64,000 nt of DNA from the NCBI GenBank assembly GCA_903825645.1, contig CAIKBL010000004.1, forward strand, positions 1 through 64,000. Direction: 5' to 3'. This document shows positions 13,381-14,904 of the stretch, piece after piece. The notes under the pieces were generated by a model. The model did not search any database. It saw nothing but the letters and a program-made list of their open reading frames with translations, and had not been told where the DNA came from. This DNA is from an uncultured Pseudomonadota bacterium (lineage in GTDB: Bacteria; Pseudomonadota; Gammaproteobacteria; Ga0077536). Made by a program: the position numbers and the translations under genes. Numbering within the stretch: position 1 is the first letter of the stretch; each line of letters opens with the position of its first letter.

Positions 13381-13928
13381 ATCGAATGCGCGCGCTTTTC
13401 CTGCTGCTCACCGCGTCCGTGGTCCTGAGCGGCTGCAATCCTAGCGATCTGAAACCGGACTTTCTCACACGCAGCGCCCCCCCAACACCCACTCCGGCGC
13501 CGGAAATCGTCAACGTCGATCCGTCCCTGACGCCGCGAGAATTACTCACCGCACGCCTTATCAACCCGCGCGATGCCAAGTCCACGACCCCCGGCATGAC
13601 GGTCGGCAAACTGATCGAATTCGCCGACCGCTACTTGGCCTGCGATTGTTCGAACAATCGTTTCTCCAAGGTATGGCATAAGCGCGGCAGCGGCTATGAG
13701 TTGACTACCAACGCGGCGCAAGTGCGGCCATTGCAGTTTGTTTGCACGAGCGCAACGGACGCTGTCGAATGCTATTTGGCGGAAATTGACCGTGGCGCCC
13801 AAATTTCAACCCTGTCTGAACGGTTCATGTCCGGCACAAGTTTCATCAGCTTCATCTATGCGCAAGGCCTCAGCTGCCCCCGCGCCGAGCCGTGCCCAAC
13901 CCAAGCCGCCGAAGCCGCGGTTAAATGA
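13377..13928 (+). CDS. Predicted lipoprotein of unknown function
   Basis: 183 residues. The type II signal peptide is clear: MNRMRALFLLLTASVVLSGCN with lipobox LSGC, so Cys20 would be lipidated. Residue 21 is Asn rather than Asp, which favours outer-membrane sorting. A proline-rich linker (APPTPTPAPE) follows. The mature domain has six further cysteines including CDCS and a C-terminal CPRAEPCPTQ, so disulphides are likely in the periplasm. No family recognised. ATGA overlap with the upstream HAD phosphatase gene. Confidence 0.75.
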   Translation: MNRMRALFLLLTASVVLSGCNPSDLKPDFLTRSAPPTPTPAPEIVNVDPSLTPRELLTARLINPRDAKSTTPGMTVGKLIEFADRYLACDCSNNRFSKVWHKRGSGYELTTNAAQVRPLQFVCTSATDAVECYLAEIDRGAQISTLSERFMSGTSFISFIYAQGLSCPRAEPCPTQAAEAAVK

Positions 13929-14262
13929 CCGCCGCGTGCCTTAGGCGCGATCCTGCTGGCCTAGTATCTGCGATTAGGTTTCGGGCCGGACCCAAGCCGA
14001 TTCATGGGCAAGACAGCGTCGACTGTCAATAATTTTTACAATTCAATCTCTTTCAATAGGGGTATTTTCTTATCAACTTTACAAAACCTCACATTCCCCA
14101 ACTTCCGAATCAATGTGAAAAATATTTAAAAACATAATGTTAAATTTTTTTTTCATCTTTGGCACCATTTTTGCTTTATCTACAACTAAAAATATCCCCT
14201 CGGTTGGAGGGCCACTGACATTGAAACGTCCCCAAGGGACGAAAGCGTGGAGCACTAGGAAA
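13929..14262. other. AT-rich intergenic region upstream of the PEP-CTERM gene
   Basis: This 334-bp gap has no convincing gene. From about 14025 to 14185 it is strikingly A+T-rich compared with the rest of the window. It contains a sigma54 promoter (14160-14174) and, in the predicted 5' leader, a small hairpin CGTCCC-CAA-GGGACG at 14227-14241. The A+T-rich stretch ahead of the promoter is where an enhancer-binding protein would be expected to bind, but I could not identify a clear repeated operator. Confidence 0.6.
14160..14174 (+). promoter_or_regulatory. Sigma54 (RpoN) promoter of the PEP-CTERM gene
   Basis: TGGCAC at 14160-14165, five bases, then TTGC at 14171-14174. The invariant GG (14161-14162) and GC (14173-14174) are exactly 10 bp apart, the fixed -24/-12 geometry. 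The predicted start is about 14186, giving a leader near 76 nt. PEP-CTERM genes in exosortase-bearing bacteria are commonly controlled by the PrsK/PrsR two-component system acting through RpoN. The match is seen; the regulator is inferred, as it is not in this window. Confidence 0.82.
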
Positions 14263-14904
14263 ATGCATAAAGTGAATCGAACAAAACTCGTCGCCGCAAT
14301 GGCGCTTGTAGCCGCCGCACTACCGAGTTGGGCCAACCCAATACCGTACCCGACGACTGGAACCGTCGCGAGCGCCAGCCGCTTCGTTGCCGGTGGCGCA
14401 TTAGTCAGTCTCTATTTTGCGGGCGCAAACGCCGGGGATGGCGATCAGATGCAACTAATCGATCTCACGACCGGCAATAAAACCGGGTGGGTTTTCTCAA
14501 ATCACGCCACGACAATTGGCGCGGAAGTCTCGCTCGCCACAAACGCCGGGGATCTGCTCGAATTTCAGCTTAAAAATGTCACCACCGGTGATATTTTTTC
14601 ATCTTTAGCAACGGACAGCGCGGACGGCATCAACCATGTCTATGCCACCGCATTTGACCCGTCAGGCCAAGCAGGTGATCTCAGCGCGCTCCCCGCGGGG
14701 AAATACCTCGGTTTTGAAGATCTCGTCTACAACCCGAATCAAAAGGCAGGCACGCGGGGCAATTCCGATCTGGATTACAACGATCTCGCTGTCATCGTGG
14801 TGGGCGATGACATACATCCAGCACCAGAGCCGTCGTCACTGGCACTACTCGGCGGGGCCTTGCTGGCCATTGGCCGGATAAGAAAAGGGCGCGAGACTCC
14901 GTGA
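14263..14904 (+). CDS. PEP-CTERM sorting-domain protein with a DUF4114-like domain
   Basis: 213 residues from the ATG at 14263 (MHKVNRTKLVAAMALVAAAL, Sec signal peptide cleaved near SWA-N). The mature part ends in a DUF4114-like block, LGFEDL followed by SDLDYNDLAVIVV, found in many surface proteins. The C-terminus is a classic PEP-CTERM anchor: APEPSSLALLGG, a hydrophobic stretch, then basic IRKGRE. An exosortase elsewhere should cleave at PEP; no exosortase or EPS gene lies nearby. Upstream ATGs in the same frame precede the promoter. The spacing from AGGA (14257-14260) to the ATG is short, so initiation may be weak. Confidence 0.85.
   Translation: MHKVNRTKLVAAMALVAAALPSWANPIPYPTTGTVASASRFVAGGALVSLYFAGANAGDGDQMQLIDLTTGNKTGWVFSNHATTIGAEVSLATNAGDLLEFQLKNVTTGDIFSSLATDSADGINHVYATAFDPSGQAGDLSALPAGKYLGFEDLVYNPNQKAGTRGNSDLDYNDLAVIVVGDDIHPAPEPSSLALLGGALLAIGRIRKGRETP

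What the first reader, a model, noticed from the sequence alone, without database searches (positions are those of the whole stretch)
14160..14904. Sigma54-driven PEP-CTERM surface protein in an A+T-rich pocket
TGGCAC-N5-TTGC with exact GG/GC spacing lies about 100 bp upstream of a PEP-CTERM, DUF4114-like protein. The surrounding 200 bp are much more A+T-rich than the window. This links the gene to the proposed PrsK/PrsR-RpoN control of exosortase substrates, and predicts exosortase, EPS and prsK/prsR genes elsewhere in the genome.
Basis: partly seen in the sequence, partly recalled or inferred. Interest (0 to 1): 0.55.

Follow-up and report, generated by a model that had tools for sequence, protein, structure and literature searches.

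The report
Enhancer-controlled promoter of a surface protein
The A+T-rich stretch looks like the on-switch of a gene for a small protein tagged for sorting to the cell surface, and it carries the same double regulator site and special promoter that precede similar genes in this genome, so it is a new example of a known control system with a few new details.

Summary
The finding is real and its interpretation holds. An exact sigma54 box (TGGCAC-N5-TTGC) lies at 14160-14174, about 100 bp before a 213-aa PEP-CTERM gene (14263-14904). The box alone is not beyond chance: 12 exact copies in the genome against 8 for the control pattern. The composite is. A model built from seven other elements of this genome, without the window, finds the window (E 2.6e-6 genome-wide). 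The A+T-rich pocket is this element.

The genomic predictions are met: exosortase A in a polysaccharide cluster, PrsK, PrsR, one rpoN; also PrsT and ihfA. This is the promoter class predicted in 2006 (PMC1569441), with RpoN dependence shown in Aquincola and regulator binding to PEP-CTERM targets in Desulfovibrio: a new member of a known kind.

Modest additions: a near-fixed double-box layout in this genome, and the same element before prsT, a MauG-like gene and an HprK-related-kinase cassette, where the boxes are conserved in three species. Binding and transcription are untested here.

The parts
14024..14040 (+). distal motif-1 copy (proposed PrsR site), TGTCAATAATTTTTACA
   Evidence: 17.4 bits with a matrix from distant genomes; position. 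Caveat: its left half overlaps a weak terminator-like hairpin at 14012-14027
14067..14083 (+). proximal motif-1 copy, TTCTTATCAACTTTACA, 43 bp from the distal one; left half degenerate
   Evidence: covered by the R1 match
14130..14142 (+). doubtful IHF-like site, two mismatches to the recalled consensus, 30 bp before the sigma54 box
   Evidence: place equivalent to the 0-1-mismatch sites of nine other elements; alignment A2; mismatches in the window counted by hand
14160..14174 (+). sigma54 -24/-12 box TGGCACCATTTTTGC
14186..14186 (+). predicted transcription start
   Evidence: spacing from the -12 GC; inference, not mapped
14263..14904 (+). gene of a 213-aa PEP-CTERM, DUF4114-like exported protein (GTG 14272 possible start)
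14818..14886 (+). PEP-CTERM sorting signal
   Evidence: 25.5 bits; 21.4 bits

Best explanation
The stretch 14024-14174 is an enhancer-dependent sigma54 promoter of the PEP-CTERM regulon. The sensor kinase PrsK phosphorylates PrsR. PrsR dimers bind the two boxes, 43 bp (about four helical turns) apart and so probably on one face of the DNA. The flexible A+T-rich DNA, perhaps with IHF, loops, and PrsR opens the RpoN polymerase waiting at 14160-14174. The transcript from about 14186 encodes an exported protein whose PEP-CTERM tail is recognised by exosortase A, which sorts it to the envelope or polysaccharide matrix; its DUF4114-like, aspartate-rich part may bind calcium and polysaccharide. Shown here: the sequence elements, their match to other elements of the genome, and the presence of the named genes. 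Inferred: binding, looping, transcription, sorting and function.
For: Two motif-1 copies and a sigma54 box at distances shared with other elements: 43 bp in 6 of 9 pattern matches of the genome, 76 bp in the window and five others. Model R1, built without the window, finds it at E 2.6e-6 genome-wide. Matrix score 34.8 against at most 12.8 in 53 controls. Distances fit the published class: motif 1 to motif 2 averages 62.8 (range 32-92), motif 2 to start averages 71 (SD 38.5) (PMC1569441). PrsK, PrsR, rpoN, exosortase A, PrsT and IhfA are present. Prior experiments: pepA of Aquincola needs RpoN1 and has a mapped -24/-12 start (PMC9850573, passages); regulator DVUA0057 of D. vulgaris enriched five predicted PEP-CTERM targets (PMC3333781, passages).
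Against: The sigma54 box alone is at chance level. The R1 match covers only model positions 35-160, so not the distal box, and the proximal box has a degenerate left half. The distal box overlaps a 5-pair terminator-like hairpin; 4 such sites were found against 1.8 expected. The IHF-like site has two mismatches. One sigma70-like site of 9/12 lies on + at 14005-14033; 2 found on both strands against 0.9 expected. No conserved orthologue was found to footprint this promoter. In PMC9850573 a prsK-prsR plasmid did not restore the mutant, and PMC3333781 states that no binding motif was validated for the group of regulators that includes DVUA0057.
Confidence: 0.82

Rival explanations
1. The sigma54 box is a chance match in A+T-rich DNA; the gene is read from a sigma70 promoter or from upstream.
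For: The exact box is about as frequent as its control pattern genome-wide; a 9/12 sigma70-like site lies at 14005-14033.
Against: The joint element exceeds all 53 controls and all 800 shuffles and is found by a model made from other elements. Sigma70-like sites are near chance number.
Confidence: 0.08
2. A real sigma54 promoter, but driven by another NtrC-like activator than PrsR.
For: The genome has at least six further NtrC-like regulators with full or long matches, 315-359 bits to the PrsR model; no binding was tested.
Against: Only one regulator passes the PrsR cut-off, and the boxes match the motif-1 class tied to PrsR by phylogenetic profile (PMC1569441).
Confidence: 0.07
3. The A+T-rich pocket marks foreign DNA that brought the gene, not a promoter.
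For: It is the lowest-GC stretch of the window; no close homologue of the protein was found.
Against: GC is back at 0.51-0.60 within the gene; the ten other elements measured are also A+T-rich, GC 0.33-0.47. The gene could still have come with its promoter.
Confidence: 0.03

Closest known systems
PEP-CTERM upstream motifs 1 and 2 with PrsK/PrsR/PrsT (Haft et al. 2006, PMC1569441)
   Same: TTTACA-ending motif 1, sometimes repeated, then a sigma54 box, then a PEP-CTERM gene; [quoted passage not shown]
   Different: Here the repeat has a near-fixed 42-44 bp spacing and the proximal copy lacks the TGTC half; the same element also precedes prsT, a MauG-like gene and an HprK-related-kinase cassette
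RpoN1-dependent pepA promoter of Aquincola tertiaricarbonis (PMC9850573)
   Same: -24/-12 box (TGGCAC and CTGCTT) before a PEP-CTERM gene, predicted enhancer upstream
   Different: There the start was mapped and RpoN dependence shown; here only sequence evidence
DVUA0057 regulator of Desulfovibrio vulgaris (PMC3333781)
   Same: Regulator predicted to control PEP-CTERM genes, with targets bound in vitro
   Different: Different organism; the paper says no binding motif was validated for that group of regulators
DUF4114 (PF13448), for example in Myxococcus PilY1.1 (PMC9109919)
   Same: Weak profile match and an Asp/Asn-rich segment that could bind calcium (inference)
   Different: Score below the Pfam cut-off; here followed by a PEP-CTERM tail

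Membership tests
PrsR/sigma54 promoter class of PEP-CTERM genes | motif 1, a 17-nt site ending in TTTACA, 32-92 nt before motif 2 | tested here: met
   copies at 14024-14040 and 14067-14083; the nearer ends 76 bp before the box
PrsR/sigma54 promoter class of PEP-CTERM genes | motif 2 with -24 GG / -12 GC, then the start codon at 71 nt on average (SD 38.5) | tested here: met
   14160-14174; 88 nt to ATG 14263
PrsR/sigma54 promoter class of PEP-CTERM genes | PrsK, PrsR, PrsT and RpoN in the same genome | tested here: met
PrsR/sigma54 promoter class of PEP-CTERM genes | PrsR binding and RpoN-dependent start | not testable with these tools
   needs experiment
PEP-CTERM / exosortase A substrates | C-terminal PEP-CTERM signal over its cut-off | tested here: met
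   PF07589 21.4 bits against 20.7; TIGR02595 16.7 against 16; narrow margins
PEP-CTERM / exosortase A substrates | N-terminal signal peptide | tested here: inconclusive
   seen by eye in P0001; no signal-peptide program was run
PEP-CTERM / exosortase A substrates | cognate exosortase in the genome | tested here: met
   XrtA 314.6 bits; XrtD also present
DUF4114 (PF13448) | score over the curated cut-off | tested here: not met
   19.8 bits against 27, E 0.0016

The most novel reading that the evidence does not exclude
PrsR promoters in this lineage have a near-fixed architecture: two PrsR dimer sites four helical turns apart, an IHF bend and a sigma54 box at a set distance. The regulon reaches beyond exosortase substrates: it includes prsT itself, a MauG-like di-haem protein and the undescribed HPr-rel-A cassette (Tat-signal secreted protein, PqqD-like chaperone, HprK-like kinase), which would make that cassette a partner of the PEP-CTERM/matrix system.
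Probability: 0.45. Interest if true: 0.45.

Novelty: new member of a known kind. Interest (0 to 1): 0.3.

Why it matters
It supports a 2006 computational prediction in a further genome and gives a sharper promoter definition (double site, near-fixed spacing) that can be used to list PrsR regulons. The same element before the HPr-rel-A cassette, whose two names no paper of the held open-access library contains, gives that cassette a regulatory context and a testable place in matrix formation.

Tried and rejected
Relatives of the protein: the related-loci scan of genome contigs with P0001 found none. A class search of 369 genomes, only four of them from the window's family (G000, G002, G015, G017, as listed), found two weak matches besides the window. 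The one in G254 is a PEP-CTERM protein between a TPR-protein gene and a gene that by eye resembles a polysaccharide export protein. The one in G155 covers residues 151-210 and lies in a protein that by eye is VWA-like. So absence from close relatives is not established; of the genus only one other genome was in that search.

Structure prediction of P0001 alone gave pLDDT 31, so no fold search was made.

A first matrix scan demanded positive scores and 50-100 bp and missed the window. I then widened it to 50-130 bp with softer pseudocounts, after seeing the failure. In one search the window's best pair is the distal box at 119 bp. In C12a, C34, C15b and C69 the best motif 1 is not the TTTACA copy. 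Five scored regions (C10, C69, prsT, C15b, C13) were chosen because they carry the element. The sigma54 weights and the IHF consensus are recalled.

A universal 43 bp was rejected. In genome contigs (69 stretches; 70 matches) 11 have TGTC-type halves in both copies: 9 at 41-44 bp, 2 at 51-52; three are from one metagenome bin and two from another, and a crude pattern shows a PEP-CTERM-like tail downstream in 4 of the 11. A class-wide search matched 3 of 369 genomes, at 28, 31 and 53 bp. Of these 14, 12 lie within 1.5 bp of a multiple of 10.5, p 1.6e-4 if independent, which they are not; the test is post hoc.

R1 beyond the own genome: in the 35 other genomes of the order only two weak hits, G030 (E 0.0026) and G001 (E 0.0075).

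Full report
Observation. The sigma54 box TGGCACCATTTTTGC is exact at 14160-14174 and is the only exact copy in the window. In the 4.13-Mb genome there are 12 exact copies against 8 for the reversed control, so the box by itself proves little. The gene starts at ATG 14263 (or GTG 14272) and ends at 14904. Its 213-aa product ends in a PEP-CTERM signal (21.4 bits, cut-off 20.7) and matches DUF4114 weakly, below cut-off. The pocket is the lowest-GC 180 bp of the window, 0.278 against 0.592.

The missed part. Upstream lie two copies of the TTTACA motif that Haft et al. 2006 named motif 1 and proposed as the activator site (PMC1569441, section 7 read): 14024-14040 and 14067-14083, 43 bp apart. The pattern TTTACA-N22..52-TTTACA occurs 9 times in the genome against 3 for the control. 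By the printed coordinates 6 of the 9 have exactly 43 bp (the window among them), one 42, one 44 and one 47; the 47 one (C1) looks like chance. In one search the window and five other elements have exactly 76 bp from the proximal TTTACA to the TGG of the sigma54 box; three others have 73, 77 and 85, and two single-box genes have 71 and 128.

Independent tests. Model R1 was built from seven elements without the window. It finds one place in the window, 14052-14177, 29.5 bits, covering model positions 35-160, so without the distal box. In the whole genome 12 places reach E 0.01: the seven training elements, which match by construction, and five new ones, namely C15 35068, C7 (cut at the contig end), C69, the window (E 2.6e-6) and C80 (E 0.001, no clear gene behind it). 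The second test used a motif-1 matrix from 22 instances in distant genomes and a sigma54 matrix with recalled weights. The window scores 34.8; the best of 53 control regions upstream of other ORFs of the window 12.8; the best of 400 plain shuffles of its own upstream region 18.7 and of 400 block shuffles 22.3. Thirteen of 23 scored regions exceed the 53 controls; five of them also exceed the block shuffles of the A+T-rich window region. Of the 17 PEP-CTERM hits (16 over the cut-off), 7 pass the controls (C15, C55b, C12a, C87, C40, C34 and the window), C21 lies behind a gene that passes, and 9 fail. Three failures (C38, C41, C55a) had under 260 bp of upstream sequence, and some start codons are uncertain. 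A further PEP-CTERM gene, C10 (23.4 bits), was not listed and carries the element.

Machinery. There are two exosortases: XrtA, 314.6 bits, beside XrtA-system glycosyltransferase, ATPase and chain-length genes, and XrtD, the VPLPA-CTERM type. PrsK and PrsR are adjacent on C26, next to an XrtA-system sugar transferase. There is one rpoN. IhfA is on the same contig (165 bits, cut-off 120); IhfB was not sought. A borderline PEP-CTERM gene on C51 ends in VPVPA, which by eye suits XrtD, and shows no element.

What else carries the element. It precedes the PEP-CTERM genes C12a, C87, C55b, C10 and C34, and C21, where a small secreted protein comes first. It also precedes prsT (TIGR02917, 469 bits; the box is 534 bp before the ATG used, so that link is looser), a MauG-like di-haem peroxidase (C15) and a small secreted protein (C69). 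On C13 it precedes a Tat-signal protein (by eye), then PqqD_rel_X and HprK_rel_A (306 bits, cut-off 200). That element is not significant with R1 (E 0.42), but scores 34.9 with the matrices. The double-box-plus-sigma54 pattern was found in 4 of 36 genomes of the order with no control match. In G005 (same genus) and G017 (another genus) it precedes the same cassette, with 44/86 and 45/85 bp against 44/85 here. The kinase stretches there are partial, 148 and 171 bits, and the PqqD-like ones pass their cut-off. Across the three species 41 of 57 box columns are identical, against 30 of 105 between boxes and 36 of 108 upstream. The match in G001 (43 and 75 bp) precedes a PEP-CTERM gene that is split over two frames in that assembly.

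IHF. Nine other elements share a site like TATCAGTNGGTTR 29-31 bp before the sigma54 box with 0-1 mismatch to the recalled IHF consensus. In the window the equivalent place, 14130-14142, has two mismatches and is doubtful; it was not among the three best IHF-like places printed for the window. These elements are alike over their length, so conservation may partly be shared descent.

Results against. The distal box overlaps a weak terminator-like hairpin, 14012-14027, that may belong to the gene ending at 13928, and a 9/12 sigma70-like site lies at 14005-14033. The proximal box lacks the TGTC half. No orthologue was found for footprinting this gene. In distant genomes 43 bp is not universal.

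Literature. Aquincola pepA needs RpoN1 and has a mapped -24/-12 start; a prsK-prsR plasmid did not restore that mutant (PMC9850573, passages). In D. vulgaris the regulator DVUA0057 enriched five predicted PEP-CTERM targets in DAP-chip, without a validated motif (PMC3333781, passages). DUF4114 in Myxococcus PilY1.1 is proposed to bind calcium and polysaccharide (PMC9109919, passages). PEP-CTERM with 'integration host factor' gave three papers, seen as listings, none on this topic by title; with 'TTTACA' only the 2006 paper. 'HPr-rel-A' and 'HprK-related kinase' gave none. Searches were the other searches. The library is open-access only.

Verdict. The site is a new member of a known promoter class. 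The modest new points are the near-fixed double-box layout in this genome and the wider regulon.

Noticed in passing
L050:258-416, L058:2662-2814, L060:3263-3415, L063 from 2543 (own genome): Four ORFs of about 50 aa that are little more than a signal peptide plus a PEP-CTERM tail.
   Followed up: no
L096:1015-4209 (G000 C13), L102, L103: HPr-rel-A cassette (divergent nucleotidyltransferase-like gene by eye, Tat-signal protein, PqqD_rel_X, HprK_rel_A) behind a conserved double-box sigma54 element in three species.
   Followed up: partly
L091:1783-3231 (G000 C15): A MauG-like di-haem cytochrome c peroxidase gene (PF03150, 126 bits) directly behind a strong copy of the element.
   Followed up: no
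L092:2623-3120, L051 from 1155, L050 near 2000 (own genome): Similar small secreted proteins (MQKIKTLLALGALLGSAAAYA type) lie behind PEP-CTERM genes or directly behind the element; the C69 one matches no Pfam or NCBIfam family.
   Followed up: no
G000 C7 end, C12 start, C69 end, C55 start and end: Several element copies sit at or near contig ends, perhaps because these repeats break the assembly.
   Followed up: no
L149, L150, L160, L164: Four uncultured Akkermansia bins share a different array of TTTACA and TGTT/TTGT-like repeats with 43 bp between TTTACA copies and 85-87 bp to a TGGCACG-N4-TTGC box.
   Followed up: no
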